Shown here piece after piece: positions 146-19,664 of a DNA stretch of 46,979 bases. The notes beneath the pieces were generated by a model. That model saw nothing but the letters and a program-made list of their open reading frames with translations. It made no database searches and was not told where the DNA came from. This DNA is from an uncultured Alphaproteobacteria bacterium (GTDB taxonomy: Bacteria; Pseudomonadota; Alphaproteobacteria; Micavibrionales; CSBR16-224), in assembly GCA_950054485.1 (NCBI GenBank), contig CATLPD010000008.1, positions 1-46,979 of the forward strand, read 5' to 3'. Position 1 is the first letter of the stretch; every line of letters starts with the position of its first letter. The translations under genes and the position numbers were made by a program.

Positions 146-164
146 GGTGATGTCAGACTAACGC
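146..164 (+). repeat. Solo IS6-family terminal inverted repeat
   Basis: The 19 bases GGTGATGTCAGACTAACGC are identical to the left ends of the two complete IS6-type elements at 44054 and 45155. No transposase is attached: to the right lies the end of a pilin-like gene whose TAG stop (160-158, minus strand) falls inside the repeat. It may be a scar of IS-mediated deletion or rearrangement. Confidence 0.75.
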
Positions 165-895
165 GCCATAAGTACGTAAACTAATTGGTAAACAACATTA
201 GCAGATCCCGCCTTCCGACAAAAAGCCATTCCAGGTACCCCTGTCCAGACATGTCCGTTTGCAAAGGAACCGTTAACGTAGAAACTTGACGCTCCAGAAG
301 CGGTGACTATCGGTGCATCACCAATTGGATTGTCAACGCCGAGTCCTCTATTGATTGCCATACATGTATCCTTGTTAAGATAATTGCTTATTAGCATTAA
401 ATCATTAGCGGATTCATCACCTGCAGAACCATCTGTTCCTATGGTACTTAATTGAGTGACGACAACTCTTAAATGACCCGCCCGCCAAGCGTTAGGATAT
501 GTTCCCGTGTCCGTTACTTCAACATTGTTTAAATCCAATGCTGCATCGGGTAAAGGTTGTGCAACCACTCCAACACTAGAGCCAAATATATCGCAGCTAC
601 CATCTGTGGGTGAATTGGCATTGTTTTGATTCATTTGGTTACCAGCATTTGTAGTATAAATAGGTGTTTCGAAATTATATTCACTTTCACCGCATCCGTT
701 CAGAAGTCTCATTCTTTGAAAGGTTTGGTTAATAACCTCAAAATATTGTATAACCTGTGAGGCAGCTATTTCGCTTTGTTCTTTCGAGGTGTTACCCACA
801 CCGCGACCAGAAGATGTAATCGCATAAGATAGGGCTGCAAAAAGAGCAACCGCAATTAAAATTAAAAACAGGGCATTTCCAGACTGAGATTTCAT
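158..895 (-). CDS. Pilin-like protein (copy A)
   Basis: A 245-residue protein starting MKSQSGNALF at 895. The frame is open further upstream to 1036, but that extension is intergenic and has no family similarity, so I reject it. The N-terminus has a short basic leader, a glycine and a long hydrophobic helix (residues about 5-25), then S-S-G-R-G. This resembles type IV pilins or pseudopilins, with Gly as the possible prepilin cleavage site, but the usual Glu5 is absent. The rest is soluble, Asn/Gly/Ser-rich, with several Cys. Copies B, C and D share the N-terminal segment and a hydrophobic tail ending in or near Arg, while the middles differ strongly. The stop codon lies inside a solo IS6 repeat, so the last codons may be altered. 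The precise role (minor pilin, surface display) is inference. Confidence 0.7.
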   Translation of the reverse strand: MKSQSGNALFLILIAVALFAALSYAITSSGRGVGNTSKEQSEIAASQVIQYFEVINQTFQRMRLLNGCGESEYNFETPIYTTNAGNQMNQNNANSPTDGSCDIFGSSVGVVAQPLPDAALDLNNVEVTDTGTYPNAWRAGHLRVVVTQLSTIGTDGSAGDESANDLMLISNYLNKDTCMAINRGLGVDNPIGDAPIVTASGASSFYVNGSFANGHVWTGVPGMAFCRKAGSANVVYQLVYVLMAR

Positions 896-1016: not shown

Positions 1017-1736
1017 CTATCTTGAATAAACGACATGGACTACTCTAGCATCATCAGCCGTTGGAGTAGTTCGCACGCAAAAAGTGTTCTGTCCTTCAAT
1101 CCGACTATCGTCTTTACCAAGTTGGTCAGTGGTAAATCCATCTAGTATTCCAGCTCCTCTGAAATATTGGTAGTCTGTGTTCCACGATCCTAGAGTGCCA
1201 ATGAGAGGGGAATCTCCAGCACTAGTCACGCCAGATACTTGATTAATTTTATCGCAGACCTCGAGCTTAACACACCGCCAAGTCATTATTAACTCACTTA
1301 GGTCAGTGCCATGCCCTAAAACGCTTACAACATCCATTTCCGCCGGTCGCGGCTCAATAACCATTGAAGTACACGCGCCGGTAGTGTTGTATGTGAATTC
1401 TGCCGGTAGATATGGCGAAACGCCACCGCCACCACTATTAAAAACATTACACTCTGGAACGCTACAACCAGTAACATCACCTAATCCAGAACCGCTCATA
1501 TCTGGTGTTCGATAATCAATATTATTAATGTTCCAACCGTTAATAAGAGTCCAGCGCTGTGTAATCGAATTAGTCATACTCAACATCTGCAAAAACTTAG
1601 CAGTTTCGATTTCTAGTGTTTCTTTATCTATTGATGATGAACCTCGACCACTGCTTGTAAGAGCATAAGAGAGGGCCGCGAATAGAGCGACCGCAATTAA
1701 AATTAAAAATAGGGCATTTCCAGATTGGCGTCTCAT
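1017..1736 (-). CDS. Pilin-like protein (copy B)
   Basis: A 239-residue protein, start MRRQSGNALF at 1736. It carries the same hydrophobic N-terminal segment as copy A (almost residue for residue through the S-S-G-R-G end) and then a divergent Cys-containing domain (C-S-V-P-E-C-N, W-R-C-V, C-D-K-I) ending VVHVVYSR. The upstream 50 bases match those of copy D (two GCCATA/TTTT blocks), so B and D probably share a promoter type. The pattern of constant N-terminus and variable body fits minor pilins or an antigenically diversified surface family. No prepilin peptidase or assembly ATPase lies in the window. Function is inference from the N-terminus only. Confidence 0.7.
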   Translation of the reverse strand: MRRQSGNALFLILIAVALFAALSYALTSSGRGSSSIDKETLEIETAKFLQMLSMTNSITQRWTLINGWNINNIDYRTPDMSGSGLGDVTGCSVPECNVFNSGGGGVSPYLPAEFTYNTTGACTSMVIEPRPAEMDVVSVLGHGTDLSELIMTWRCVKLEVCDKINQVSGVTSAGDSPLIGTLGSWNTDYQYFRGAGILDGFTTDQLGKDDSRIEGQNTFCVRTTPTADDARVVHVVYSR

Positions 1737-1738
1737 AA

Positions 1739-1786
1739 GTTAAGTATAAAATAAAAATATGGCGAAAATAAGGCTAAAAAGTATGG
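1739..1786 (-). promoter_or_regulatory. Conserved upstream region of pilin-like copy B
   Basis: In the minus-strand sense this holds GCCATACTTTTTAGCC, then TTATTTTCGCCATA, then an AT-rich block ahead of the start. Nearly the same sequence precedes copy D (3573-3621), and its inner part precedes copy A (about 897-937). Conservation outside the genes suggests a promoter or a co-duplicated cassette boundary. No clear -35/-10 pair with 17-bp spacing could be fixed by eye. Confidence 0.4.
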
Positions 1787-1816
1787 CGTGGATGTAGTCC
1801 ATCGCTAAATTTTCTT
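1787..1816 (+). repeat. 30-bp IS6-end-like repeat, copy 1
   Basis: It reads CGTGGATGTAGTCCATCG then CTAAATTTTCTT. It matches the copies at 2798, 3622 and 19665 in length, order and most bases. It also resembles the first 30 bases of the true IS6 elements at 44054 and 45155 (outer GGTG, inner TTTTCTC). It lies upstream of pilin-like copy B. Confidence 0.65.
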
Positions 1817-1906
1817 TAGTGTTTTAAATCGTTATAAATATTTTTGTCGCTGACAAGCCCCACAGTTTAACAGGTTTTATTAATTTTTAATTGTTATAAT
1901 TTCTAA

Positions 1907-2635
1907 ATGTATAATGCTAAAGGAAACGCTTTATTTTTGATATTAATCGCCGTTGCGCTTTTTGCGGCGCTTTCTTACGCGCTTACACAAAGCAGCCGTG
2001 GAGGATCGAGCGCGGATAAAGAAATTAGAGCTATTTCTGCTTCTACATTTATGCAGTATATTGCTATGATAGAGCAGACGATTACGCGCAATAATGTGCT
2101 CGGATCGTATGATTAAATGACTTTCAATAGTGCGAATTCGACGACAACCACTGTTTATAACCCGGACGGTTCAACAAGTAGTGGAAGTGTTGTGGGATTG
2201 TTCAATTCTGAAGTCGGCATTCCTAAAGAGATTGTCCCACAAGAACTTATCGCATTTTCACCCGGTGATGTAGCGTATGATGATAATAATTGGAGTATGG
2301 TTTACAACGGTATTTTAGAGACCTCCTCTGGTGTGCCATTGGGGTCAGCTTTGGGTGACACATATTTGGAAATTGCTTATCTTGATATAAATTTTTGTGC
2401 CAGCTTAAATGAACAGTATCATAATGACGATACTGTTTTAACGGGTGTAACACCATCAGGTATTACAGGTTCGCGTGCAGGTCATCTTCTCCGTAGAAAT
2501 AATAACGAGGTTTCTAGGTCAGGTGCTTTGGGAAAGAAACCCTTGACTGGTTCAGTTACCTATCCACGGTGTTTTTCGAGTACCTCGAATGGAAAATTAG
2601 TAGGAACTTTTATATACCCCCTCGTGATTAGGTGA
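1907..2635 (+). pseudogene. Pilin-like protein (copy C), inverted and interrupted by an in-frame stop
   Basis: Two stretches, 1907-2116 and 2117-2635, are in the same frame and are separated only by TAA at 2114-2116, followed at once by ATG. The first part carries the family N-terminus (GNALFLILIAVALFAALSYA, then S-S-R-G). The second part carries the variable body and the family tail ending YPLVIR. Together they give a protein of about 240 residues, the family length. It is the only member on the plus strand and does not have the upstream block shared by B and D; an AT-rich TTGTTATAAT lies before it instead. I read it as a pseudogene by nonsense mutation. Readthrough, or re-initiation of the anchorless domain at 2117, is possible but unsupported. 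Confidence 0.7.
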
Positions 2636-2797
2636 TTTTTTAAAAAATATATGTCAGATGTGAATTCACAGGCGCCTCCAAAAAGAGCTTTTTTATATGT
2701 GGATATCATGAAGAGTATTATGCGATAAAGGTTTTTTAGCGGGCCAGTATAACGTGATAAAAATATGCGATGGTGTGCCGTCACTCTCGAGAAAACA

Positions 2798-2827
2798 GGT
2801 GGATGTAGTCCATTGCTAAATTTTCTC
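2798..2827 (+). repeat. 30-bp IS6-end-like repeat, copy 2
   Basis: It reads GGTGGATGTAGTCCATTG then CTAAATTTTCTC. It abuts the 3' end of pilin-like copy D; base 2827 is also the last base of D's TAG stop. It has the same orientation as copy 3 at 3622, so gene D lies between two direct copies about 824 bp apart. Confidence 0.7.
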
Positions 2828-3570
2828 TAACTATATTGAAGTATAGAATAAAAGAGATATCCTCCTATATCTGTAATTCCAGATGCTGGAGATAATGCGC
2901 AGCCGAATAAGTAAGATGGACTGCCAAGCTCAAAGCGGGACCCCCCTGTGGCCAGATTACCTGTAAATTTACTAGGTCCTGCAATAATATTATTATCAGA
3001 AGTAATGATTGCACCTGCTACAGATTCTCTTGCAATGGCTTCACATATGTTTTCATTAACGTATGGCAAAAATATTATCAATGGTGCTATTCCACCGTTC
3101 AAAGGTATATGGCAATCTGAATCCGCGCTGCCTAAATTATCAATACATGTGGCGGCGCTAAAAACAAATTCACCATACAGGGATCCGGCAGATTTAGAAT
3201 TATCTAACCATTCTGATTTTGGTCTTAAATAACTCAAGTTAGCGCCGTTTTTATTAAATAAATAGCAATCAGTAGAACTGCCTGAGTTGTAATAATCGTC
3301 ACTGCCATCTGTTTCTAAATTGCCATCACCGTCGCTATCGTAATGAAATGATAAGTCTTCAGGAATACAATCATTTATGATGTTTAAGCGTGTTATTGCC
3401 TGTTGTAATGAGGTGGCATACTGAACAATCTGTGAAGCGGCAATCTCGGCCTGCTCGCGGTCTATGCCTCCGTCCCCACGCCCTGACGTTGTGATAGCAT
3501 AGGAAAGTGCGGCAAATAGCGCGACGGCGATTAAGATCAAGAACAGAGCATTTCCAGATTGGTGCTTCAT
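2827..3570 (-). CDS. Pilin-like protein (copy D)
   Basis: A 247-residue protein, start MKHQSGNALF at 3570. It has the common hydrophobic N-terminal helix, T-S-G-R-G, then a variable domain with an Asp-rich stretch (D-S-D-G-D-G-N around residues 77-83, possibly calcium-binding by resemblance) and several Cys (C-I-P-E-D, C-Y-L-F, C-I-D, C-H-I-P). It ends YLFYSILQYS. Direct 30-bp repeats flank the gene on both sides, which makes it look like a recombinational cassette. Expression, if any, would come from the conserved region just to its right. The family assignment rests on the N-terminus. Confidence 0.7.
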   Translation of the reverse strand: MKHQSGNALFLILIAVALFAALSYAITTSGRGDGGIDREQAEIAASQIVQYATSLQQAITRLNIINDCIPEDLSFHYDSDGDGNLETDGSDDYYNSGSSTDCYLFNKNGANLSYLRPKSEWLDNSKSAGSLYGEFVFSAATCIDNLGSADSDCHIPLNGGIAPLIIFLPYVNENICEAIARESVAGAIITSDNNIIAGPSKFTGNLATGGSRFELGSPSYLFGCALSPASGITDIGGYLFYSILQYS

Positions 3571-3572
3571 GC

Positions 3573-3621
3573 TTTAAGTATAATATAAAAGTATGGCAAA
3601 AATAAGGCTAAAAAGTATGGC
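3573..3621 (-). promoter_or_regulatory. Conserved upstream region of pilin-like copy D
   Basis: It contains two GCCATACTTTT blocks in the minus-strand sense separated by TAGCCTTATTTTT, then an AT-rich stretch before the start codon. It is nearly identical to the region upstream of copy B. Probably the promoter, but the exact elements are not resolved. Confidence 0.4.
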
Positions 3622-3651
3622 GGTGGATGTAGTCTTTCGCTAAATTTTCTC
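3622..3651 (+). repeat. 30-bp IS6-end-like repeat, copy 3
   Basis: It reads GGTGGATGTAGTCTTTCG then CTAAATTTTCTC, between pilin-like copy D and the end of the sulfide operon. It is the boundary between the pilin cluster and the sulfide locus. Confidence 0.7.
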
Positions 3652-3654: not shown

Positions 3655-5328
3655 TTATTTGTCCTTGCAGATTTCGGGTTTTGCCATCCATTCACGCCCT
3701 TTAAGCATCGCTTTCCAGTAAATGGGCGGCAATATGCGCTCCTTTAAAAGCCATGACAAACGTGATGGTTTGGTGCCATCCAAAACAAATTTGGGAAAAC
3801 TGGGTAATAGTTTACCGCCATAGCCGAATTCGGCCAGAACGATTTTACCGCGTTCGACTGTTAATGGACATGAACCATACCCATCATACAATCCACGTGT
3901 TTCTGATATGCCTATGTCATGAAGAACATTCATCGCGACAACAGGGGCTTGTTTACGCGCTGCCGCAGCCGTTTTGGCATTCGGTGCATTCATGCAATCA
4001 CCTAATGCATAGATGTTTTCGTATTTTTTGTGTTGCAGGGTTGATTGATCGACATCTACCCAACCATTTTCATCGGCCAACGGGCTGACTTTAATGAAGT
4101 CAGGAGCGGATTGCGGCGGTACCACATGGATCATATTAAAGCCAGTTTCAATGATCTCATCTTCGCTGTCATCATTTGCTTTTTTAAACCAGGCCCGTTT
4201 CTCGGGCCCATCAATTCTGACAAGGTTATGACCGAAATTAAGATTAATACCGTATTTTTCGACATACTCCATCAATGGGGGCACGTATTCTTTGATGCCA
4301 AAGATAACGCCGCCCGCATTATTAAAATGAACATCTACATTCTTAAGGCAATTTTTCTTAAGCCAATGGTCGCAGGAAAGATACATAGCCTTTTGTGGTG
4401 CGCCTGCACATTTAATTGGCATTGGCGGCTGTGTAAAAATAGCCTTGCCACCGTTTAAACCTTGAACCAGCTCCCACGTATATGGTGCAAGATCGTAACG
4501 ATAATTTGATGTAACGCCGTTTTTACCAAGGGTTTCTTCCAGCCCTTCAATTGCGTTCCAATCAAGTTTCAGGCCTGCGCAAACAATCAGCCGATCGTAT
4601 TGCACAACACGGCAGCCTTCCAGAATAACTGTATTCTTTTCAGGCTCGAAAGCGGCGACGGCCGACTTTATCCATTTCACATTATCGGGGATCAGTGACG
4701 CCACAGTCTTAACCGTATCACAGGGATCAAAAATTCCGCCGCCTACCATTGTCCATCCAGGTTGGTAATAATGTGTTTCAGCAGGGTCAATAATAGCAAT
4801 ATCAAGTGACTTATCGCGCCCAAGCAGGCTGGACGCTACAGCAATACCGGCTGCCCCTGCGCCCACAATAACTATCTGGTGTTTGGCATCAATTGTATCT
4901 TCTGGAATATGCCCGCCATTTGCAATGCGACGCACAACGCCTGACATATCATATCCTGCATCTTTTGCACGTTTAAGAATTTCAGATGTTTCACACTTTC
5001 CGGCCTGTGATAATGACCACAGAGTAATAGATCGTGTTCCTGAACGGCAATAAGCCAAAACAGGTCCCGGTAATTCTTGAAGCTTATCACCAAATATTTT
5101 GGCGTCCTTGTCAGTAATTTTTCCACCTTCAATAGCCAGATAGAAAGTTTCAATACCTTGAATTTTTGCAGCGTTTTCAATTTCTGCAAATGTGGGCTGA
5201 TCGCCATCTTCCCCGTCAGGGCGGTTACAAATAATCGCGCGAAACCCCGCCTTTTTTATGTCTGGCAAATCGCCAGATAGAATTTGCGGGGATACGGTCA
5301 GGTGATCAGTAACTTTATTAAATTTCAT
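3655..5328 (-). CDS. sqr: Fused phosphatase-like (DUF442) and sulfide:quinone oxidoreductase
   Basis: A 557-residue, two-domain protein. Residues 1-130 are a DUF442/Blh-type protein-tyrosine-phosphatase-like domain with the loop C-R-S-G-T-R-S (94-100). From about 150 it is an FAD-dependent oxidoreductase with G-A-G-A-A-G (155-160). The redox cysteines expected of type II SQR are present in P-I-K-C-A-G-A-P-Q-K (C306) and G-D-C-M-N (C444), followed by K-T-A-A-A. SQR oxidises sulfide at the membrane, passes electrons to quinone and forms a persulfide. The role of the fused phosphatase-like domain is not settled; handling of the sulfur product is often proposed. It lies 8 bases after the dioxygenase gene in the tauE-blh-sqr operon. 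A clear family match; substrate specificity is inferred from motifs. Confidence 0.9.
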   Translation of the reverse strand: MKFNKVTDHLTVSPQILSGDLPDIKKAGFRAIICNRPDGEDGDQPTFAEIENAAKIQGIETFYLAIEGGKITDKDAKIFGDKLQELPGPVLAYCRSGTRSITLWSLSQAGKCETSEILKRAKDAGYDMSGVVRRIANGGHIPEDTIDAKHQIVIVGAGAAGIAVASSLLGRDKSLDIAIIDPAETHYYQPGWTMVGGGIFDPCDTVKTVASLIPDNVKWIKSAVAAFEPEKNTVILEGCRVVQYDRLIVCAGLKLDWNAIEGLEETLGKNGVTSNYRYDLAPYTWELVQGLNGGKAIFTQPPMPIKCAGAPQKAMYLSCDHWLKKNCLKNVDVHFNNAGGVIFGIKEYVPPLMEYVEKYGINLNFGHNLVRIDGPEKRAWFKKANDDSEDEIIETGFNMIHVVPPQSAPDFIKVSPLADENGWVDVDQSTLQHKKYENIYALGDCMNAPNAKTAAAARKQAPVVAMNVLHDIGISETRGLYDGYGSCPLTVERGKIVLAEFGYGGKLLPSFPKFVLDGTKPSRLSWLLKERILPPIYWKAMLKGREWMAKPEICKDK

Positions 5329-5336
5329 TTACGGCC

Positions 5337-6197
5337 TCATTTGGGATCGAACTTGATAGGAATTTTTATGTATTGAACACCATTTGCGCTTTTAGGGCCA
5401 AAACTGCCGAGGCGCATGTTGGTTTGGATAGAAGGTAGCAAAAGCTTTGGAACGGCGAGGGTATCATCACGCTCTTTACGTTTTTTTACAAATTCTTCTT
5501 TGGTCGTGTTGGCCTTGATCATTTTGTTATTGGTCTTTTGTTCACCGACTGTTATTTTTACCAGCGGCGCATCACCATCCTTTGGATAGTCGTGACAAAG
5601 GTACATTACGGTATCGTCAGGCATCTTATAAAATTTTTGGATAGAGTCATATAAGTCCTCTGCACTACCGCCGGGGAAATCACAGCGGGCTGTGCCAAGG
5701 TTTGGATTGAAAATCGTGTCCCCGACAAAAATCGCATTACCTATTTTGAATGTTGCACAGGCGGGTGTATGGCCCGGGGTATGAAGCACTTCTACATCCA
5801 GGTTGCCGATTTTGAATTTCTCCCCATCTTTAAAAAGCTGATCAAATTGTTCGCCCGTCAGGGGGGTGTCGCCATCTGTTTCAAACAAAGGGACCCATGT
5901 CTTTAGAACATCTTTTATGCCTGTACCAATTGCGGTTTTGCCGCCGATGTGATCTTTCAGGTAAAAGGCGCCTGTAATGTGATCCGCATGGATATGGGTT
6001 TCCAACAGCCATTCATTCGTCAGGCCATTGTCTTTGATATATTTTATGACGCGGTCTGCATTCTTTGTTGTGATTTTGCCGGAAAACTGATCATAATCCA
6101 AAACAGAGTCAATAACAGCGCACTTTTTGGTGCTTTCATCAATAACAATATGTGTGAATGTAGAGGTGTCCGTATCGTAAAAACTCTCGACTTTCAT
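5337..6197 (-). CDS. blh: Metallo-beta-lactamase-fold persulfide dioxygenase (Blh/ETHE1-like)
   Basis: A 286-residue MBL-fold protein. The metal motif T-H-I-H-A-D-H lies near residue 86, followed by T-P-G-H-T, G-D-T-I-F and a late C-H-D-Y. These supply the two-His-one-Asp iron site of persulfide dioxygenases, which turn glutathione persulfide into sulfite. Blh proteins of this type sit with SQR and the BigR/SqrR regulator in other proteobacteria. Here the gene is between tauE and the SQR fusion, and all point left. The start MKVESFYDTD is preceded by a GAAAGGACC-type ribosome-binding site. Probably cytosolic, as no signal peptide is seen. Confidence 0.88.
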   Translation of the reverse strand: MKVESFYDTDTSTFTHIVIDESTKKCAVIDSVLDYDQFSGKITTKNADRVIKYIKDNGLTNEWLLETHIHADHITGAFYLKDHIGGKTAIGTGIKDVLKTWVPLFETDGDTPLTGEQFDQLFKDGEKFKIGNLDVEVLHTPGHTPACATFKIGNAIFVGDTIFNPNLGTARCDFPGGSAEDLYDSIQKFYKMPDDTVMYLCHDYPKDGDAPLVKITVGEQKTNNKMIKANTTKEEFVKKRKERDDTLAVPKLLLPSIQTNMRLGSFGPKSANGVQYIKIPIKFDPK

Positions 6198-6209
6198 AGT
6201 AGGTCCTTT

Positions 6210-6998
6210 CTATATCAATTCTTTCAATAAAATTATTGCGGCAATTACCAAAGTAAAGACAGCGAAGATTTTTTGCAATTTTTTGCCATCAAAACTATGA
6301 GCATATTTTGTCGCGATGGCCATACCCAGAAAGGTTGCAGCAAAAAAGTAAGCCAGCATCGGTATTTGCAAATCAATGCCCGCCTGCAAGTCGCCTGTGA
6401 AACCGATTAGGGATTTTAAGGCAATAATTAAAAGGGAGGCCCCGACCGCCTTTTTCATTGGCATACCCATGAAAAGCACCAATGCCGGAATAATCAGAAA
6501 GCCACCGCCTGCGCCCAATATACCCGTTAAAACACCAACAACAGCGCCTTCTGTCAATATAAGGGCTATGGGATGCTCTGCGGTATGAGGCTTTAGCGTT
6601 TGGTTGGCATTGCGCAACATCATGACGGCAGCGACCACCATTAAAATTGCGAATAACACCATGATGGCATCATCACGGCTGATTTCAACAGGGTATGATA
6701 TAAGAACGTCAGGCAAGGCAGGTATCAAATAAGCACGTGTCAGATATACGGCAACGATCGAAGGTATTGCAAAAGTAATTGCAGCTTTTACATTAATCAG
6801 CCCTTGTCGAAAATATTTATATGCTCCAAAGGCTGCCGCTGATCCAACAATCAGTAACGAATAGCCTGTCGCAACTGTTGGCGATACGCCCATCAAATAA
6901 ACAAGTATCGGAACAGTGAGTATTGATCCACCACCGCCAAGGCTGCCGAGAACGGCACCCATTATAAAGGCTGAAATATACCCCAAGATGATAATCAT
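6210..6998 (-). CDS. TauE/SafE-family sulfite or organosulfur exporter
   Basis: A 262-residue integral membrane protein starting MIIILGYISAFIMG at 6998. The frame continues upstream to 7283, but that stretch is antisense to the arsR gene and has no membrane segments, so I reject it. The G-S-L-G-G-G-G-S motif near the start and its repeat G-I-L-G-A-G-G-G-F are typical of TauE/SafE (DUF81) permeases, with about eight hydrophobic segments. It is the first gene of the leftward sulfide operon and shares its promoter region with the divergent regulator. It most likely exports sulfite or thiosulfate made by the dioxygenase and SQR. Substrate is inferred from context. Confidence 0.88.
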   Translation of the reverse strand: MIIILGYISAFIMGAVLGSLGGGGSILTVPILVYLMGVSPTVATGYSLLIVGSAAAFGAYKYFRQGLINVKAAITFAIPSIVAVYLTRAYLIPALPDVLISYPVEISRDDAIMVLFAILMVVAAVMMLRNANQTLKPHTAEHPIALILTEGAVVGVLTGILGAGGGFLIIPALVLFMGMPMKKAVGASLLIIALKSLIGFTGDLQAGIDLQIPMLAYFFAATFLGMAIATKYAHSFDGKKLQKIFAVFTLVIAAIILLKELI

Positions 6999-7030
6999 AT
7001 GAATTTGAACCTTGTGTTTAAAATCGATTC

Positions 7031-7059
7031 TGATATTATAAAAACATGATATTATAAAA
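7031..7059. promoter_or_regulatory. Two 13-bp direct repeats, candidate SqrR/BigR operator
   Basis: TGATATTATAAAA occurs at 7031-7043 and again at 7047-7059, a 16-bp step, between the divergent tauE and arsR genes. AT-rich operators between the regulator and its target operon are normal for BigR/SqrR-type repressors. The repeats could also be part of the promoters, since TATTAT resembles a -10. Binding is inference. Confidence 0.5.
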
Positions 7060-7077
7060 TTGTAAAGTGATAAAGAT

Positions 7078-7389
7078 TTGGATATAGAATTTTCACAAAA
7101 AAGAGCCCAGCAAGTTGCCGAGTTTATGAAGTGCTTCGGTAGCGAGCACCGCCTTCTTATACTGTGCCAGCTGGTTGAAGGTGAAAAATCCGTCACGGAA
7201 TTGATCGAAGCAACGGGCATGGCGCAAACATCAATGTCCCAGCATTTAAATAAATTGCGCAGGGAGGGTTTGATTGATTTCAAGCGGCAACATAGGATTT
7301 TATATTATTCAATTGTCGATCAAAATGCGTTAAAGATAATGCAAACCTTGTATGAAGCTTTTTGCAAAGATATAAAACAGGATAGCTAA
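7078..7389 (+). CDS. ArsR-family persulfide-sensing repressor (SqrR/BigR-like)
   Basis: A 103-residue winged-helix protein with a TTG start at 7078; an ATG at residue 17 would remove part of the first helix and is less likely. The recognition helix region reads M-A-Q-T-S-M-S-Q-H-L-N-K-L. Cysteines at residues 30 (L-I-L-C-Q-L) and 96 (A-F-C-K-D) are 66 residues apart. This is the same spacing as the two sensing cysteines of SqrR (41/107) and BigR (42/108), which form a polysulfide bridge. It would repress both the tauE-blh-sqr operon and its own cydAB operon until persulfide accumulates. It ends one base before the cydA start, so the genes are co-transcribed. Confidence 0.85.
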   Translation: MDIEFSQKRAQQVAEFMKCFGSEHRLLILCQLVEGEKSVTELIEATGMAQTSMSQHLNKLRREGLIDFKRQHRILYYSIVDQNALKIMQTLYEAFCKDIKQDS

Positions 7390-7390
7390 C

Positions 7391-8788
7391 ATGTTTGAAA
7401 TGATAAATCTTGATCCCGTTCTTTTGGCACGTATCCAATTCGCTTTTACGGTATCTTTCCACATTATTTTCCCGGCCTTTACTATTGGTCTTGCCAGTTG
7501 GCTGGCTGTTGTTGAAGGATTATGGCTGAAGACCGGCAAAAATGTCTATCAGGAAATATATCGCATGTGGATCAAGGTTTTTGCCGTTGCTTTTGGTATG
7601 GGCGTTGTATCAGGTGTCGTCATGTCCTACCAATTCGGCACCAATTGGTCGGTGTTTTCGGACAAGGTTGGAAATGTCATTGGGCCGTTGTTGGGATACG
7701 AGGTTTTAACCGCCTTCTTCCTTGAAGCATCTTTCCTTGGCATCATGCTGTTCGGTTGGGGGCGCGTCAGTAAACGTATGCATTTTGTCGCAACGCTGAT
7801 TGTTGCTGTCGGGACGCTCATTTCGGCCTTCTGGATTTTGGCGGCAAACAGCTGGATGCAAACACCACAAGGGTTTGAAATCCGCAGCGAGGGATTGCTT
7901 TATCCAACAAACTGGATGGAAATTATATTTAATCCATCTTTCCCCTACAGATTTTTTCATATGTTGACCGCGGCCTATCTGACAACAGCCTTTTGTGTCG
8001 GCGGTGTCGGTGCCTATTTCTTTTTGAAAAAGAAGTTTAAAGAACACGCAAAAGTCATGATGGCAATGGCGATGTTGATGGCATTTTTTGTCGCGCCATT
8101 GCAAATGCTGATCGGTCATGCACATGGTGAAAATACCTTGCACCATCAGCCGATTAAAGTTGCGGCTATGGAAGGAAACTGGGAAGAGGGGGCAAATATT
8201 CCGCTCTTGTTGTTTGCGCTGCCGAATGAGGAAACGGAAAGTAACGATTACGAATTAAAAGTGCCGGGTCTCGCGAGTTGGGTTTTAACGGGCGATGTAA
8301 ACGGGGTTGTGCCAGGTTTAAAAAATGTTCCTGCGGATGAGCGCCCACCCGTGGCGATTGTATTCTGGTCTTTTCGCATTATGGTTGGCCTTGGTGTTTT
8401 GATGATTTTAACAGGCTTTATGGCGGCCTTTTTGCATTGGCGCAAAACGTTATTCACAAATATATTATTTCATCGCTGGTGCCTTGTCATGGCGCCCAGT
8501 GGATTTATTGCATTATTGGCAGGCTGGTTCGTCACAGAAGTTGGTCGTCAGCCCTACACGGCTTACGGTGTGATTAAAACGGCAGAGTCCATATCACCTG
8601 TGATTGCAGAACAGGTGGCGATTTCACTGGCAGCGTTTGTAATTGTTTATTCAGTTATATTTGGCGCGGGTGTCTATTACATGTTCAAAGTCTTCAGAAA
8701 AGGTCCTTCCTTGATCGGAAACGATGAAAAAGGATATTACGACCATAGTATGGAGAAGTCTGTTGCGCGTGAAGTGACGAAAGATTAG
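7391..8788 (+). CDS. cydA: Cytochrome bd-type (CIO-like) ubiquinol oxidase subunit I
   Basis: A 465-residue membrane protein with the conserved haem and quinol sites of CydA: the early His in F-H-I-I-F-P-A-F (haem ligand), F-L-E-A-S-F-L-G, F-F-H-M-L-T-A-A-Y (haem b558 His) and the Q-loop Q-P-I-K-V-A-A-M-E. It also has a Met in R-I-M-V-G-L-G and the signature G-W-F-V-T-E-V-G-R-Q-P. The short Q-loop and the DUF2474 partner downstream indicate the cyanide-insensitive oxidase branch. It starts one base after the arsR stop, inside the sulfide regulon. Bd oxidases resist sulfide, which explains the location. It probably works in the inner membrane with CydB and the small third subunit. Confidence 0.95.
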   Translation: MFEMINLDPVLLARIQFAFTVSFHIIFPAFTIGLASWLAVVEGLWLKTGKNVYQEIYRMWIKVFAVAFGMGVVSGVVMSYQFGTNWSVFSDKVGNVIGPLLGYEVLTAFFLEASFLGIMLFGWGRVSKRMHFVATLIVAVGTLISAFWILAANSWMQTPQGFEIRSEGLLYPTNWMEIIFNPSFPYRFFHMLTAAYLTTAFCVGGVGAYFFLKKKFKEHAKVMMAMAMLMAFFVAPLQMLIGHAHGENTLHHQPIKVAAMEGNWEEGANIPLLLFALPNEETESNDYELKVPGLASWVLTGDVNGVVPGLKNVPADERPPVAIVFWSFRIMVGLGVLMILTGFMAAFLHWRKTLFTNILFHRWCLVMAPSGFIALLAGWFVTEVGRQPYTAYGVIKTAESISPVIAEQVAISLAAFVIVYSVIFGAGVYYMFKVFRKGPSLIGNDEKGYYDHSMEKSVAREVTKD

Positions 8789-8793
8789 GAGAA

Positions 8794-9822
8794 GTGGAAA
8801 TGATTGATTTTTCTATGTGGCTTGATTTGCCGCTTATTTGGGGGCTTTTGATTGCAACCGCAGTCTTTCTCTATGTCGTTTTGGATGGCTTTGATTTGGG
8901 CGTTGGCATTTTGTTTCCTTTCGCGCCATCAAACAACTGTCGCAGCAAAATGATGAATTCGATTGCGCCGTTTTGGGATGGTAATGAAACGTGGCTGGTT
9001 TTGGGCGGCGGTGGTTTGTTTGCAGCCTTCCCCGTTGCATATGCCATCATTATGCCTGCTTTATACCTTCCGATAATATTTATGTTGATGGGTTTGATTT
9101 TTCGGGGTGTTGCTTTTGAATTCAGGTTCAAAGCCTCAAAGGAAAAGCGCTGGATCTGGGATGCTGCCTTTCACTTTGGATCATTGCTGGCAGCTGTCAT
9201 GCAGGGCATCATTCTAGGGAATTTTATTCAAGGCTTTGAAGTAACGGGCCGTGGCTATACGGGCGGACCATTGGATTGGGCCAATGGTTTTGCTTTGCTA
9301 ACGGGTGTGGCCTTGGTTTTCGGATATGCGCTGCTGGGTGCAACATGGTTGATATATAAGACGGATGATATTACTCAAAAATGGGCGCGTTTGGCAGCGA
9401 AGTATAATGTGATACTTGTTGCCTTTTTTATGGCTGTCGTCAGTATTGCAACGCCTTTTGTGGATGAGCGTATATACAAACTCTGGTTTACGCTGCCAAA
9501 TTTCTATTACTTGCTGCCCATTCCTTTAATGGCGGTCTCCTTGTTCAGCATTGTCGTGCGAGATCTGAACAATCCAAAACGTGAGGCTCGGCCCTTCCTA
9601 TGCTCTCTTGGTCTGTTTCTTTTAGGATACATAGGTTTTGGCATAGGCATGTACCCTTGGATTGTTCCGTTTGAATTCACAATTTGGGATGCGGCTGCTG
9701 TTTCTACATCACAGTCAATCCTGCTGATCGGTACAGCTTTGTTCTTGCCGCTTATATTGGCGTATACAGCTTTTTGTTTCTGGACTTTCAGAGGTAAAAG
9801 TACGCACGAGGCAATGTATTGA
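8794..9822 (+). CDS. cydB: Cytochrome bd-type ubiquinol oxidase subunit II
   Basis: A 342-residue CydB with about eight or nine membrane helices. The N-terminal L-D-G-F-D-L-G-V-G, P-F-W-D-G-N-E-T-W-L and F-R-G-V-A-F-E-F-R motifs are diagnostic. The gene starts 5 bases after cydA, preceded by AGGAGAAG, and its TGA overlaps the ATG of the next small gene (TGATG), so the three are translationally linked. Length is typical of the family. It forms the heterodimeric quinol oxidase with CydA. Confidence 0.95.
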   Translation: MEMIDFSMWLDLPLIWGLLIATAVFLYVVLDGFDLGVGILFPFAPSNNCRSKMMNSIAPFWDGNETWLVLGGGGLFAAFPVAYAIIMPALYLPIIFMLMGLIFRGVAFEFRFKASKEKRWIWDAAFHFGSLLAAVMQGIILGNFIQGFEVTGRGYTGGPLDWANGFALLTGVALVFGYALLGATWLIYKTDDITQKWARLAAKYNVILVAFFMAVVSIATPFVDERIYKLWFTLPNFYYLLPIPLMAVSLFSIVVRDLNNPKREARPFLCSLGLFLLGYIGFGIGMYPWIVPFEFTIWDAAAVSTSQSILLIGTALFLPLILAYTAFCFWTFRGKSTHEAMY

Positions 9823-9959
9823 TGTGGCAAAAATCCTGGAATAATAGATCAAAAAAACAGAAACAATGGCTCTGGTTTTTAGGACTCTGGGTCTTGGGAC
9901 TTTTTAGCGTTTTATGCGTTAGCTATATGATCAAATGGCTAATGTTTTTACAAATGTAG
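9822..9959 (+). CDS. DUF2474-type small membrane subunit of the bd oxidase
   Basis: A 45-residue ORF too short for normal gene calling. It starts with the ATG that overlaps the cydB stop and ends at TAG 9957-9959. The N-terminus is basic (K-K-Q-K-Q) and is followed by one hydrophobic helix with several Trp (W-L-W-F-L-G-L-W-V-L-G-L). Small DUF2474 proteins of this size and layout follow CIO-type cydAB genes, so I assign it on position, size and helix pattern. It would stabilise or assemble the oxidase, like CydX in E. coli. The exact family is from memory of its pattern, not a search. Confidence 0.75.
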   Translation: MWQKSWNNRSKKQKQWLWFLGLWVLGLFSVLCVSYMIKWLMFLQM

Positions 9960-9968
9960 GAGAATAAA

Positions 9969-10481
9969 ATGACAAAAACAGTTGATGTAAAAAAAGCTAA
10001 AGAAATGTTTGAGAAAGGCGCAGCCTTGATTGACGTGCGCACAGGCGCAGAACATCGCGCTGTGCACATACCGCATTCGAAGAACATCCCGCTTCATGAG
10101 ATTGATGAGGATAAAGTAAGAAAAGCTGTCGGCGATACAAGAGATATTCTGGTGCATTGTAAATCAGGCAGCCGGTCTGCCCAGGCGCTTGGAAAATTAT
10201 CCCTGAATGATAAAACGCTTTATTCGGTCAAAGGCGGTATTGAGGCTTGGGAAGGTGCGGGCTTTGATGTTGTTACAAAAGAAACGCATATTAAGCCGTT
10301 AAACCAGCAAGTTCAAATCGGGGCTTCATCAATGATTTTATTAGGTCTAGCCTTATACTTATTTGTGACGCCGTGGGGGTTGCTCTTGCCGTTGTTCGCA
10401 GGTTTGGGTCTGATGAATGCAGGTGTTACCGGCGTATGCGGCATGTCAAAACTGCTGGTGCGTATGCCGTGGAATAAATAG
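9969..10481 (+). CDS. Rhodanese with C-terminal DUF2892 membrane domain (YgaP-like)
   Basis: A 170-residue protein with a strong AGGAG ribosome-binding site 9 bases after the DUF2474 gene. Residues 1-100 form a rhodanese domain with catalytic loop H-C-K-S-G-S-R-S. Residues about 115-170 contain two hydrophobic segments and the V-T-G-V-C-G-M-S motif of DUF2892. It resembles E. coli YgaP, an inner-membrane sulfurtransferase. As the last gene of the arsR-cydAB operon it would accept or pass on sulfane sulfur near the membrane-bound SQR. It converges with the next gene with no spacing: its stop ends at 10481 and the opposite stop begins at 10482. Confidence 0.9.
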   Translation: MTKTVDVKKAKEMFEKGAALIDVRTGAEHRAVHIPHSKNIPLHEIDEDKVRKAVGDTRDILVHCKSGSRSAQALGKLSLNDKTLYSVKGGIEAWEGAGFDVVTKETHIKPLNQQVQIGASSMILLGLALYLFVTPWGLLLPLFAGLGLMNAGVTGVCGMSKLLVRMPWNK

Positions 10482-11831
10482 TTATTTATGTGCCGCTTTC
10501 CACGCGCCCATGGAGCCGAGGTAGATATCAATATTTTTAAACCCTTTGGATTGCAGCCACCCGGCAGCGACTGTTGCGCGCTGACCACTTGCACACATGA
10601 CTGTATAATGTTTTGACGGGTCAAGATCTTTGTATTTTGTGTTTAAATGACCGATATAGATATGTTTTGATCCTTCAATTTTACTTTTTTCAACTTCGTC
10701 CTGTCCGCGAACGTCCAGCAAGATCCAATTATCTTTCTGATTGTCCAAACGGCTTTTAACATCTTCTGTCGAAATGGTCGGTATGGATTCAAAATGTGAA
10801 CCCTTTGCAACGGCTGGTACAAATCCGGTATAGCCGCCCAGAATATTATCAAAACCTGTACGTACCAAGTGCTCGACAGATACTTTCAATTTGCTTTCAT
10901 CATCAGCAATCAGACACAGGCTGTCCTTTTCATCCAAAAACCATCCGGCAAAGGCCGGAATCATGCCTGTCGGCAGACATAGGCTGCCGGGTAGATGTCC
11001 CGATGCAAATGACATGGTTTCACGTGTATCAATAATATAATCGGGGTTTGCGTCTTTTAGATCAGTCAGTGTCATGATTTTCGGGAAATGAATACGTGGC
11101 GCAGAATTTGCGCCTTCGAGATTTAAACGTTCCATCGTCTTGAAATAAGGCGGTTGGTAATGAACCTCGCTCACTTTAGCTTTTATGAATTCATCACGGC
11201 TAAGCTGCAGGCGCGGATTGTTTTTTCGTTCATGTCCGATACTTGAAAATTCACGATCTGCCATTCCGGACCCACACACAGATCCGGCACCGTGGGCGGG
11301 GTATAACAGCGCCTGATCGCCAAGATCCAGAATTTTCTGCAGGCTATCATATAAGGTGGCCGCCATTTCTTCCATTTGGTCAGGGTAAAAGTCAGTGCGC
11401 CCGACATCGCCTATAAATAACGCATCGCCAGTGAAAACGCCGACTGCGCCGTATTTATAATTCTGGTCATATAAGGCATAGGCGATATGGTCTTTTGTAT
11501 GACCCGGCGTTTCAAGTGATTTGATGGTCGCATCGCCGATCTTAAATTCGTCACCATCAATGGTGGTTTTGGCAAACTCTACATCCCCTGCTGCATTCGG
11601 CCCGTGATAAACAGTGGCACCTGTCACATCCGCTAATATGGGCGAGCCTGTAATTAGGTCCTCATTACGGTGGGTTTCAAATATATGCGTGATTTCAAAT
11701 CCGTTCTTTCGGGCAATCTCAACATAGATATCGCAATCGCGCCGTGGATCGATAACGGCAGCTTTGCCCTTTGATCCGATAATATATGACAGGTGGGATA
11801 ATCCCGGGGTTTTGATTTTTTCAAGAAACAT
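10482..11831 (-). CDS. MBL-fold persulfide dioxygenase fused to two rhodanese domains (CstB-like)
   Basis: A 449-residue, three-domain protein. Residues 1-240 are an MBL-fold dioxygenase with the altered motif E-T-H-R-N-E-D-L in place of H-x-H-x-D-H. The first His, T-P-G-H-T-K-D-H and G-D-A-L-F-I-G-D are kept, which is what the mononuclear iron site needs. Residues about 255-345 are a rhodanese-like domain without an obvious active-site Cys loop. Residues about 355-449 are a second rhodanese with C-A-S-G-Q-R. The arrangement matches CstB-type enzymes that convert persulfide to sulfite and then thiosulfate. It has its own promoter region to the right, separate from the arsR operon but still part of the sulfide locus. 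Confidence 0.88.
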   Translation of the reverse strand: MFLEKIKTPGLSHLSYIIGSKGKAAVIDPRRDCDIYVEIARKNGFEITHIFETHRNEDLITGSPILADVTGATVYHGPNAAGDVEFAKTTIDGDEFKIGDATIKSLETPGHTKDHIAYALYDQNYKYGAVGVFTGDALFIGDVGRTDFYPDQMEEMAATLYDSLQKILDLGDQALLYPAHGAGSVCGSGMADREFSSIGHERKNNPRLQLSRDEFIKAKVSEVHYQPPYFKTMERLNLEGANSAPRIHFPKIMTLTDLKDANPDYIIDTRETMSFASGHLPGSLCLPTGMIPAFAGWFLDEKDSLCLIADDESKLKVSVEHLVRTGFDNILGGYTGFVPAVAKGSHFESIPTISTEDVKSRLDNQKDNWILLDVRGQDEVEKSKIEGSKHIYIGHLNTKYKDLDPSKHYTVMCASGQRATVAAGWLQSKGFKNIDIYLGSMGAWKAAHK

Positions 11832-11898
11832 AAGTGTCTGACCTTTTGCAATTCAATATGCATATGAATTTAGGCTATTACAGTTCCATCAAAAACAT

Positions 11899-11916
11899 AA
11901 GAGATATTATCACATT
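11899..11916 (+). repeat. 18-bp repeat, copy 1
   Basis: AAGAGATATTATCACATT is identical to 43666-43683. Here it lies about 70 bases upstream of the CstB-like gene, so it may be an operator. It shares the core GATATTAT with the repeats at 7031 and 7047. Confidence 0.5.
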
Positions 11917-11970
11917 AGATAGGGTTGCCTGTTTATGCATATTATAAATAATTAAAAATTTAGATTAAAG

Positions 11971-12020
11971 AGTGAAGGGCAAACAAAAACCTTTTGTTTG
12001 CCCTTCACTTTATTTTTTTT
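11971..12020. terminator. Strong hairpin terminator
   Basis: A perfect 18-bp stem (11971-11988 with 11992-12009) and a 3-base loop are followed on the plus strand by TTATTTTTTTT. No rightward gene ends close by. It lies 40 bases beyond the end of the leftward yfdX gene and, read leftward, is followed by a weaker T-rich stretch. It probably serves yfdX and insulates the two loci in both directions. Confidence 0.75.
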
Positions 12021-12049
12021 CAATTCTATTTTCTTATCTGCCTCCTTTC

Positions 12050-12982
12050 TCAGTTAGCTTTGTTTTGTGCCGGTTGGCTGTCTGTGGTCATCGAGCCCAT
12101 AAAGCCTTTGATCTTGTCAAAGAACCCTACACCCGATTTCCCGCCAGATGTTTTCTCTTGAATAGCTCCAATTTCATCATAAAAACGCTCGAAGTCTTTT
12201 TTTTGGCCGTAGCCAAGAGCTTGTGCGAATTTTATCTCAACCTCTGCTGCTTCAAGAAGACCTGACAGCCGTTGGTTTTCATCTTCCGTTCGCTCTTTAT
12301 TTTCGGCTAATGTCTCCGCCTCAGCTAATAGAGCTTCGGCTGAAACAACGGGAAGCGGAATAACCTTTTGAGTGATCACCATTGTGTTAAGTGCGGTTTG
12401 CAAAACGTTTTTGGCTTCTTCCGTTTTCCCCTCATCAATCAACTTTGCTGCTGACTTAATGGCAAGTGGATAGGTTGCTAAAGGTATATTGGTGGTACTA
12501 ATCACCGTTTCACTTGCAAGACCTCTTAATAAACGCCTCGCTTCTTGAACCTTGCCATCATCGAGCATATTTTTGGCATCTTTTCTAGCGTCTTTAACTG
12601 CTTTCAAAGAGCCTAAAACGTTTTGAGTTACGGCGGTAACTCCTGTTGGGGCCAGAGCTAGAGTTGGATCGCGCGCCAGAATAATTTCAAGCTTACCGGT
12701 TGCTTTTTCTAATGCTGACAAAGCTTCCTTACTTTTCTCTTCGTCTAAAGCTTTGAGAGCGTTATGCGTTTCGCGCAGGGCTGTAACCGCCTCATTTACT
12801 ATTTCTTTTCGCTTTTCTGCGGTCTGATCTTGTACATTTTGTTCAATCGGCACGTCAGCGTTTGCTGCAACTGTAGTATCCACGTTTTCAGCATATACGA
12901 CTGAACTTGATCCAATAATTAATGTTGCGAGCGCGAATGTGCACACGCCCGTTTTGAGTTTATTTAATATAACGTTTTTCAT
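12050..12982 (-). CDS. yfdX: YfdX-family periplasmic stress protein
   Basis: A 310-residue protein with an N-terminal signal peptide (basic start, hydrophobic core, V-V-Y-A before E-N). It then has a long helical region rich in Ala, Glu, Lys and Leu with the YfdX pattern (E-A-V-T-A-L-R-E-T..A-L, A-R-R-L-L, I-P-L-A-T-Y-P-L-A-I-K, I-P-L-P-V-V-S-A). YfdX proteins are induced by acid and other envelope stress, and their mechanism is poorly known. The C-terminal 60 residues (G-V-G-F-F-D-K-I-K-G-F) extend beyond the usual domain. The leader GCAAACGAAAGGA resembles those of the neighbouring hsp20 and CBS genes. It lies downstream of hsp20, possibly on the same transcript. Confidence 0.85.
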   Translation of the reverse strand: MKNVILNKLKTGVCTFALATLIIGSSSVVYAENVDTTVAANADVPIEQNVQDQTAEKRKEIVNEAVTALRETHNALKALDEEKSKEALSALEKATGKLEIILARDPTLALAPTGVTAVTQNVLGSLKAVKDARKDAKNMLDDGKVQEARRLLRGLASETVISTTNIPLATYPLAIKSAAKLIDEGKTEEAKNVLQTALNTMVITQKVIPLPVVSAEALLAEAETLAENKERTEDENQRLSGLLEAAEVEIKFAQALGYGQKKDFERFYDEIGAIQEKTSGGKSGVGFFDKIKGFMGSMTTDSQPAQNKAN

Positions 12983-13000
12983 TTTTTTTCCTTTCGTTTG

Positions 13001-13043
13001 CTATCGGTCTAGCAAGGGGGCTGCCTGCCACGGGGCAGACAGC
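13001..13043 (-). other. Two hairpins between hsp20 and yfdX
   Basis: In the leftward transcript, GCTGTCTGCC/GGCAGGCAGC (13043-13020, one mismatch) is followed by TTGCTA/TAGCAA just before the yfdX ribosome-binding site. No T-run follows, so these are more likely an mRNA processing or stability element, or an attenuator, than a terminator. Confidence 0.45.
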
Positions 13044-13066
13044 GCACCTTCTGCGAGGGGTCAAAG

Positions 13067-13540
13067 TTAGCTTTTCTTTTTATTTTCGATTTGTTTAGCC
13101 GCACCCTTGATCGGGATCATGCGAGGTTTCTTTTCCTCTGGAATTTCCCTGATCAGGCTAATGGTCAGCAAGCCATCTTTCATGTCTGCCTCAGTCACAT
13201 GAATGTGATCAGCAAGGCGGAATGTGCGTTCAAAGGATCGCGTTGCAATACCGCGGTGCAATACCTGAACCTCTTCCTCGGTCTCTTTTTTATTGCGAAT
13301 GTGACCTTCAACAGTAAGAACACCGTCCTGAAGAACGATATTCAGGTCATTCATGTCAAAACCAGCAACGGCCATGACAATTCTGTAATCGTCTTCGCCA
13401 AGTTTTTCTATGTTGTATGGAGGATATCCATCAAAGCTTTCACTTGTACCGTTAAAAAGGTTTTCGAATAGATCGTTAAATCTATCAAAGCCAATCGTTT
13501 CACGCATCAATGGAGTAGTAAGTGTCATTACGTTTGCCAT
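13067..13540 (-). CDS. Small heat-shock protein (Hsp20/alpha-crystallin family)
   Basis: A 157-residue protein starting MANVMTLTTP at 13540, with AAGGAG 7 bases upstream. A 12-codon in-frame extension has no ribosome-binding site and overlaps the shared leader, so I reject it. The alpha-crystallin domain (about 35-130) has Y-R-I-V-M-A-V-A-G-F, the V-L-T-V-E-G-H region and the late M-K-D-G-L-L-T-I-S-L, ending with I-P-I-K of the I-x-I motif. It binds unfolding proteins in the cytosol without ATP. Its 20-base leader (13548-13567) is identical to that of the divergent CBS gene, suggesting common control. Confidence 0.92.
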   Translation of the reverse strand: MANVMTLTTPLMRETIGFDRFNDLFENLFNGTSESFDGYPPYNIEKLGEDDYRIVMAVAGFDMNDLNIVLQDGVLTVEGHIRNKKETEEEVQVLHRGIATRSFERTFRLADHIHVTEADMKDGLLTISLIREIPEEKKPRMIPIKGAAKQIENKKKS

Positions 13541-13681
13541 TTTCAATCTCCTTTCGTTAAGCAAGACTAAATACAACTTACGCTTGAACTGCTATTTAGA
13601 GCCTACTATAGAGCACCCTACGCAATTCTAAAATTATAATTAGTAAACTGAATAAAAAAATCAATACCATTTTTAAAAAAA

Positions 13682-14414: not shown

Positions 14415-14717
14415 TAAATAACAGATACTGTCTAAAATTATAGCGAGAGTGATATTACACAGTGAATGTGCAAAAGATATTTAATGTTTCTCTAGCTCGG
14501 AAGAAAACGAATACAAATCATGATTAAAAGGTTTATGATTGTTGGACTGGATGCACAATACTTTAATGGATTGTCTCTGGTCATGAATATGAGTGTAACA
14601 TGACGAGCTTAAGAAAAGCTCAAGTTAGTTTGGCAATCTCATAAGACCGAATCGTTGCCACTGTTCCCCTTTCGTTCTAATGTATTATAATTGAGCGGAT
14701 TAAGTGTGGGGAATATC
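14415..14717. other. Gene-free stretch with a possible degenerate IS6 end
   Basis: No convincing gene is seen. At 14621-14636 CAAGTTAGTTTGGCAA matches the right end of the IS6 element at 44841 (CAAGTTAGTCTGACAA) except for two bases, and GACC follows at 14645 after a short extra stretch. A small GAGCTT/AAGCTC hairpin precedes it. This region is the left flank of the methyltransferase-recombinase module and may be its old junction. Confidence 0.35.
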
Positions 14718-19593: not shown

Positions 19594-19617
19594 AAAAAAG
19601 CCCGCAAGTTGCGGGGC
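19594..19617 (-). terminator. Leftward rho-independent terminator
   Basis: On the minus strand a GCCCCGC/GCGGGC stem is followed by TTTTTT. It would end transcription from the nuclease-like gene at 19756-20562. Confidence 0.75.
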
Positions 19618-19664
19618 GTGGGGCGTATATTCTCTAATGTTCGGAAACTAGCAGACTAGATGGC

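What the first reader, a model, noticed from the sequence alone, without database searches (positions are those of the whole stretch)
1787..3651. Pilin-like gene cassettes separated by a 30-bp IS6-end-like repeat
Four genes share an almost constant N-terminal segment and have very different bodies. Three direct 30-bp repeats (1787, 2798, 3622) lie between them. Gene D is flanked on both sides, with the repeat abutting its stop. The repeats have the same length and the same outer and inner ends (GGTG...TTTTCTC) as the first 30 bases of the IS6 elements at 44-46 kb. Crossing over between repeats, or transposase action on them, would delete, duplicate or invert cassettes, giving a surface-variation system.
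Basis: partly seen in the sequence, partly recalled or inferred. Interest (0 to 1): 0.65.

Follow-up and report, generated by a model that had tools for sequence, protein, structure and literature searches.

The report
Left ends of tRNA-targeting genomic islands
The repeat between these pilin-like genes is the left landing scar of mobile DNA islands that insert at the 3' ends of tRNA genes, apparently moved by a serine recombinase (an enzyme type that reviews say does not use tRNA genes), and not a pilin-shuffling repeat.

Summary
The repeats are real (26-27 of 30 bases alike), but they are not IS6 ends, and nothing shows that they shuffle pilins. Searched across the order (Micavibrio relatives), the 30-mer is part of a 34-bp site, TGGCNGTGNNNGTAGTCTNTCGCTAACTNTTCTC. 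It occurs in 20 of 142 genomes, with no reversed-pattern control hits, in diverse intergenic places. A fourth window copy (19661) lies 300 bp after a DUF2924-associated large serine recombinase, joined to a conserved block ending GACTAGA. In relatives the same recombinase is followed by that block and then by a tRNA gene whose 3' end faces it: 22 of 27 loci in the order and 17 of 24 in other Alphaproteobacteria (eight tRNA types). The repeat is therefore the left end of islands inserted at tRNA 3' ends. The shared core is only TGGCNG; its variable base matches the tRNA, and GACT/AGTC arms are symmetric around it, as in serine-integrase sites. The window carries one 16-kb sulfide/cytochrome-bd island and part of a second. 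Pilins B and D are probably old neighbours of tRNA-Ser genes. That the serine recombinase is the enzyme is inferred. Closest precedent: Dehalococcoides tmRNA islands.

The parts
1783..1816 (+). Site U1: left-end attachment sequence next to the promoter of pilin B (ATGGCG then GTGGATGTAGTCCATCGCTAAATTTTCTT, one G lost in the core)
2798..2827 (+). Site U2: left-end sequence abutting the stop of pilin D; TGGC core replaced by AACA
3618..3651 (+). Site U3: complete 34-bp left end (attL) of the 16-kb island, TGGCGG core
19661..19694 (+). Site U4: left end of the next island, directly joined to the right end of the first
19629..19660 (+). Block V: right end of the first island (ATTCTCT...AGACTAGA), the block that abuts tRNA 3' ends in relatives
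19601..19615 (+). CCCGCAAGTTGCGGG inverted repeat before block V; a similar hairpin precedes many island right ends in relatives
17823..19361 (+). Large serine recombinase (Pfam Resolvase + Recombinase), the probable integrase
16911..17309 (+). DUF2924 protein upstream of the recombinase
16003..16659 (+). DUF5681 protein of the mobility module
14691..15857 (+). N6/N4 DNA methylase of the mobility module
3655..13576 (.). Island cargo: phosphatase-like domain/pyridine-nucleotide-disulphide oxidoreductase (sulfide:quinone reductase-like), metallo-beta-lactamase-fold, TauE, ArsR-type regulator, cytochrome bd I and II, rhodanese, MBL-rhodanese, YfdX, Hsp20
158..895 (-). Pilin-like gene A
1017..1736 (-). 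Pilin-like gene B, probable former neighbour of a tRNA-Ser 3' end (47 bp from core to ATG)
1907..2635 (+). Pilin-like gene C, interrupted by TAA at 2114-2116
2736..2772 (-). Remnant of another pilin 3' end (AYFYHVILAR*)
2827..3570 (-). Pilin-like gene D; model resembles type IV pilins
46297..46979 (+). Second serine recombinase, cut by the contig end; C-terminal pieces on contigs C3 and C7 are each followed at 301 bp by tRNA-Ser
44054..44860 (-). IS6-family element, not part of the att system
45155..46067 (-). IS6-family element, not part of the att system

Best explanation
The 30-mer is the element-side half of a left attachment site (attL) of genomic islands that insert at the 3' ends of tRNA genes. 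The islands are moved by a DUF2924-associated large serine recombinase. The island circle carries block V, the core TGGCNG and block U; the chromosome offers the last bases of a tRNA gene (CNGCCA, read on the other strand). After insertion the left junction is old flank + TGGCN + U, and the right junction is V + TGGCN + intact tRNA. Later islands insert at the regenerated tRNA end, so islands stack up in tandem with their U ends in the same direction. In the window, U3 to V (3618-19660) is one island, U4 starts a second, and U1 and U2 are relics of older left ends. Pilins B and D carry U at the exact position where a third pilin, on contig C2, still has a tRNA-Ser; they are probably flanks pushed away from their tRNA, not cassettes. 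Shown: the site, the junctions, the tRNA link, the core match, the symmetry. Inferred: that this recombinase is the enzyme, that islands still move, and the order of past insertions.
For: (1) 34-bp site with sharp edges in 20 of 142 genomes, zero control hits. (2) The recombinase has a tRNA 3' end facing it, mostly 166-420 bp downstream, in 22 of 27 testable loci of the order and 17 of 24 elsewhere in the class, over 8 tRNA types; chance is about 1% per locus (my estimate). Four short relatives of about 430 residues have none. (3) In 19 of 22 order loci GACT stands at -6..-3 from TGG, against 1 in 256 by chance, mirroring AGTC at +14..+17 of U around TGGCN|G. (4) V, core and U stand joined at window 19629-19694 and in L118. 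(5) Base 5 of the core matches a facing tRNA further along the same contig: G112 and G099 T/Gln, G138 and G042 G/Ser, G056 and G027 A/Trp; in G099 and G027 another tRNA lies nearer. (6) Only 6 bp are shared by the two junctions, too few for the 25 bp or more of tyrosine integrases (PMC9262239). (7) C3 and C7 recombinase ends lie 301 bp from tRNA-Ser. (8) B, D and the C2 pilin have CCGCCA or CGCCA exactly 47 bp before the ATG; in C2 it is a tRNA-Ser.
Against: Most loci that carry U lack a recognisable recombinase within 10 kb; they may be islands that lost it, or the enzyme may differ. Several recombinase loci have no tRNA downstream. U1, U2 and U3 are not preceded by block V, so the leftmost modules are not intact islands and their history is unresolved. 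The right tRNA junction of the second island is off the contig. No excision circle, empty site or activity has been seen. The likeness between U and the IS6 right end (18-20 of 30) is unexplained.
Confidence: 0.77

Rival explanations
1. The 30-mers are ends or scars of an IS6-family element, and transposase acting on them moves the pilin genes.
For: 18-20 of 30 identities to the right end of the IS6 copies at 44054 and 45155, including TTTTCTC. An IS6 copy interrupts a pilin gene on C2.
Against: No element with the 34-mer at its end and a transposase was found. The order-wide copies have no IS6 gene in the held flanks. True IS6 ends read TGTCAGACTAA, not GTAGTC. The 34-mer is joined to tRNA-directed island ends.
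Confidence: 0.07
2. Pilin genes are mobile cassettes, each bounded by U, shuffled by the serine recombinase so that surface pili vary.
For: D lies between two U copies with its stop on one and its promoter on the other. B has U at the same promoter distance. A C11 pilin has U 95 bp past its stop. The family is hugely expanded (42 matches).
Against: Block V is missing at the pilin modules. About 26 other scanned pilins have no U, and relatives' U sites have no nearby homologue of A, B or D. C is a pseudogene. No arrangement variants are known.
Confidence: 0.12
3. The sites belong to tRNA-directed islands, but the enzyme is another integrase and the serine recombinase is a passenger.
For: Many U-bearing loci lack the serine recombinase nearby. 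Most tRNA-targeting integrases known are tyrosine recombinases (PMC4383910).
Against: The recombinase sits at a near-fixed distance from the tRNA end across divergent genomes. The shared core is only 6 bp with symmetric arms, as for serine integrases. No tyrosine recombinase was among the window proteins scanned.
Confidence: 0.12

Closest known systems
Dehalococcoides ssrA-specific genomic islands (integrase DsiB), PMC3146451
   Same: Serine recombinase of about 540 residues near one island edge; islands in tandem array behind an RNA gene; repeated fragments of the RNA 3' end; ParB- and modification-type genes in the module; large cargo variety
   Different: Target is tmRNA only, cut in the T-loop, with 20-bp direct repeats and a second small recombinase DsiA. 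Here many tRNA types are used, the core is 6 bp at the CCA end, and the partner gene is DUF2924
tRNA-directed islands of tyrosine integrases (Islander, PMC4383910; Micavibrio aeruginosavorus islands, PMC3189940)
   Same: Insertion at a tRNA 3' end that leaves the tRNA intact, tandem arrays, heavy-metal cargo
   Different: Tyrosine enzyme and a long tDNA fragment at the far end. The Islander paper states that serine integrases are not known to use tRNA genes
Phage large serine integrases (Bxb1 and others, PMC9262239)
   Same: Resolvase + Recombinase domains, very short common core, half-site symmetry
   Different: Reviewed as not integrating into tRNA genes; use protein genes
SCC elements (CcrA/CcrB)
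   Same: Serine recombinase, tandem cassettes at one gene 3' end (comparison made in PMC3146451)
   Different: One protein-coding target, two recombinases
IS6 family elements
   Same: Partial likeness of the right end
   Different: Other terminal repeats and transposase; no link to tRNA
Integron cassettes
   Same: Arrays in one direction bounded by a repeat
   Different: No integron integrase was seen among the window proteins, modules reach 16 kb, and the site does not look like attC (from memory, not tested)

Membership tests
Large serine recombinase islands | Recombinase with Resolvase and Recombinase domains inside the element | tested here: met
   PF00239 and PF07508 in window 17823-19361
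Large serine recombinase islands | Short common core shared by attL and attR | tested here: met
   6 bp TGGCNG shared in G112, G138, G042, G056
Large serine recombinase islands | Dyad-symmetric half-sites around the core | tested here: met
   GACT at -6..-3 in 19 of 22 and AGTC at +14..+17
Large serine recombinase islands | Recombination activity on these sites | not testable with these tools
   needs a bench assay
tRNA-gene-directed genomic islands | Element end abuts a tRNA gene 3' end | tested here: met
   39 of 51 long recombinase loci have a facing tRNA
tRNA-gene-directed genomic islands | Displaced tDNA fragment at the far end | tested here: met
   only the last 6 bases (TGGCNG), base 5 matching the tRNA
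tRNA-gene-directed genomic islands | tRNA in the window itself | tested here: not met
   no tRNA in the window; the contig ends inside the second recombinase, and C3 and C7 supply candidates
Dehalococcoides-type ssrA islands | Insertion at the tmRNA gene | tested here: not met
   all facing RNA genes found were tRNAs
IS6 family element ends | 30-mer is a terminal repeat of an element with an IS6 transposase | tested here: not met
   no transposase beside U copies; IS6 ends differ
Type IV pilins (genes A-D) | N-terminal hydrophobic helix after a G-x processing site and a pilin-like fold | tested here: inconclusive
   model pLDDT 78, best matches all type IV pilins but Z only 6.5, 4.6 and 4.5; Pfam matches only below the cutoff

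The most novel reading that the evidence does not exclude
Pilin genes have been recruited as non-autonomous modules bounded by the U site. A tRNA-reading serine recombinase can excise, stack and exchange them, giving a surface-variation system tied to tRNA-Ser loci.
Probability: 0.12. Interest if true: 0.8.

Novelty: new variant of a known kind. Interest (0 to 1): 0.6.

Why it matters
Two of the papers consulted state that serine integrases do not, or are not known to, use tRNA genes (PMC4383910, PMC9262239). Here a whole family of them appears to do so across Alphaproteobacteria, on at least eight tRNA types. The core base that varies is the one that matches the target tRNA, and it lies at the symmetry centre where serine integrases read their central dinucleotide. 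If confirmed, this gives island finders a new rule (6-bp core, not 25 bp or more), explains tandem islands in Micavibrio relatives, and offers recombinases with natural, predictable tRNA-end targets.

Tried and rejected
IS6-end origin: rejected as above; the apparently solo IS6 end at C1:504 is a longer decayed IS6 copy by eye. dif/Xer site, integron attC, conserved RNA: considered because relatives often have one copy; no Rfam or tRNA match in the window, and the site has no dif-like arms by eye. The 34-mer in viral contigs: no exact match. The 34-mer downstream of every recombinase: not found in relatives, which first argued against a link until the tRNA junctions were seen. A decayed U copy between A and B: shuffle support only 29 of 2000, not claimed. 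No same-genus genome is held, so strain comparison was impossible. A GTDB-wide exact scan found 13 stretches, mostly Alphaproteobacteria MAGs, two of them labelled Micavibrio. Limit: pilins could not be tested for arrangement variants.

Full report
Observation. The three repeats exist at the stated places and are far beyond chance. The pilin-like genes share a nearly invariant N-terminal segment (24-26 of 27 residues) with divergent bodies. C is broken by an in-frame TAA, and a further pilin 3' end survives at 2736-2772. The first repeat copy lacks the exact GGTG and TTCTC ends.

Pilins. Gene D finds 42 matches in its own 2.28-Mb genome and matches in 38 of 55 genomes sampled from the order; most have up to 10, one 26. 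No Pfam or NCBIfam family matches above its cutoff. A model built on 23 paralogues (pLDDT 78, pTM 0.76) has a long N-terminal helix, and its best solved-structure matches are type IV pilins (6t8s Z 6.5, 8uhf Z 4.6, 9iuf Z 4.5). This supports 'pilin-like' without proving it. Many share a promoter block of the form GCCTTATTTT[TC]GCCATATTTTTATnnTATA.

The repeat is not confined to pilins. A tolerant scan over 142 genomes of the order found a 34-bp site, TGGCNGTGNNNGTAGTCTNTCGCTAACTNTTCTC, in 20 genomes with no control matches (first hits). Thirty-two aligned copies show sharp edges, with near-zero information outside 34 bp plus a few A/T bases. Flanking genes differ from genome to genome. Where one locus holds several copies they all point the same way: L118 three, L121, L122, L126, L131 and L133 two each, window four. 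A GTDB-wide exact scan returned mostly Alphaproteobacteria MAGs, two labelled Micavibrio. In the window the fourth copy, at 19661, follows a large serine recombinase with DUF2924, DUF5681 and DNA methylase partners.

The tRNA link. In front of the array-internal copies stands a second block, TTCTCT...GACTAGA. Behind serine recombinases on contigs C3, C7 and C5 of the same genome lie tRNA-Ser(gct), tRNA-Ser(gga) and tRNA-Gln, with the 3' end (TGGC...) towards the recombinase. In relatives the block abuts the tRNA's TGG directly: 22 of 27 testable loci in the order and 17 of 24 in the rest of the class have a facing tRNA, usually 170-420 bp downstream. Types: Ser 14, Gln 7, Tyr 6, Trp 4, Met 4, Asn 2, Val 1, Ala 1. 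With roughly 40 tRNA genes per 2 Mb, about 1% would be expected (my estimate). Four shorter relatives, about 430 residues long, have none; three further short relatives, scored with the long class because of upstream open frame, also have none. Outside the order the GACT arm is seen in only 6 of 17 junctions, so the arms there differ.

Site anatomy. The two island ends share only TGGCNG with each other. Base 5 follows the tRNA: T where tRNA-Gln lies beyond (G112, G099), G where tRNA-Ser lies beyond (G138, G042), A where tRNA-Trp lies beyond (G056, G027). In G099 and G027 another tRNA lies nearer to U than the matching one, so those two are weaker. GACT at -6..-3 and AGTC at +14..+17 are equidistant from the point between core bases 5 and 6 (19 of 22 loci in the order). 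This is the layout expected of a serine-integrase site whose central dinucleotide must match its target (established knowledge of serine integrases; inference here). At window 19629-19694 the right end of one island, the core and the left end of the next stand joined, as they would on an excised circle.

The window re-read. U3 at 3618 to block V at 19660 is a 16-kb island carrying a sulfide:quinone-reductase-like protein with phosphatase-like domain, metallo-beta-lactamase-fold and rhodanese proteins, TauE, cytochrome bd, YfdX, Hsp20 and the recombinase module. U4 begins a second island (metal efflux, multicopper oxidase, P-type ATPase by inspection; two IS6 copies), and a second recombinase runs off the contig. 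U1 and U2 are left ends without their islands. D, B and a third pilin on contig C2 all have CCGCCA or CGCCA exactly 47 bp before their ATG. On C2 this is the 3' end of tRNA-Ser(tga); in B and D it is the core of U. The simplest reading is that B and D once lay directly behind tRNA-Ser genes and were separated from them by island insertion. How two such units came to lie in tandem, and why U2 abuts D's stop, is unresolved; homologous recombination between the similar promoter-U segments is possible.

Literature. The Islander paper says only tyrosine integrases are known to target tDNAs (PMC4383910); [quoted passage not shown] The nearest precedent is the Dehalococcoides tmRNA islands with serine integrase DsiB, also in tandem (PMC3146451). 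Micavibrio aeruginosavorus has islands beside tRNAs, seven of nine with lambda-type integrases (PMC3189940). DUF2924 next to a large serine recombinase is known in Wolbachia prophages (PMC11376236). Searches for an earlier report of serine recombinases in tRNA genes found none in the held library; subscription papers are not covered, so novelty is provisional.

Verdict. A real repeat, misread as an IS6-derived pilin shuffler; it is an attachment-end relic of tRNA-directed, probably serine-recombinase-driven islands.

Noticed in passing
whole genome G000; L007-L048: 42 matches to a pilin-like family in a 2.28-Mb genome (26 in G017, up to 10 in most relatives), with an invariant N-terminal segment and a shared promoter block GCCTTATTTT[TC]GCCATATTTTTAT.
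   Followed up: partly
window 146-165: A 20-bp exact copy of the IS6 right end (GGTGATGTCAGACTAACGCG) overlaps the stop of pilin A and then stops abruptly; a relic of an IS6 insertion or deletion.
   Followed up: partly
L044, contig C2:14654-15577: An IS6 copy interrupts a pilin gene after about 23 codons; that pilin starts 47 bp behind a tRNA-Ser(tga).
   Followed up: partly
window 44054-44083 and 45155-45184: The IS6 right end resembles the island left end U (18-20 of 30 bases, ending TTTTCTC) more than shuffles do; no explanation.
   Followed up: partly
L046, contig C11: A pilin gene with a U site lies beside a usher/periplasmic-chaperone/spore-coat-U-like cluster (named by eye); a tRNA-Ser fragment with block V lies at 4844-4892.
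   Followed up: no
L118 (G087 contig C18): Two modules of about 8 kb bounded by three same-direction U sites and no serine recombinase: candidate non-autonomous islands.
   Followed up: no
L203, L208, L213, L220: Relatives of the recombinase about 430 residues long have no tRNA downstream; the C-terminal part missing from them may carry tRNA-end recognition.
   Followed up: partly
window 959-1019: Weak trace of a further decayed U copy between pilins A and B (29 of 2000 shuffles as good).
   Followed up: partly
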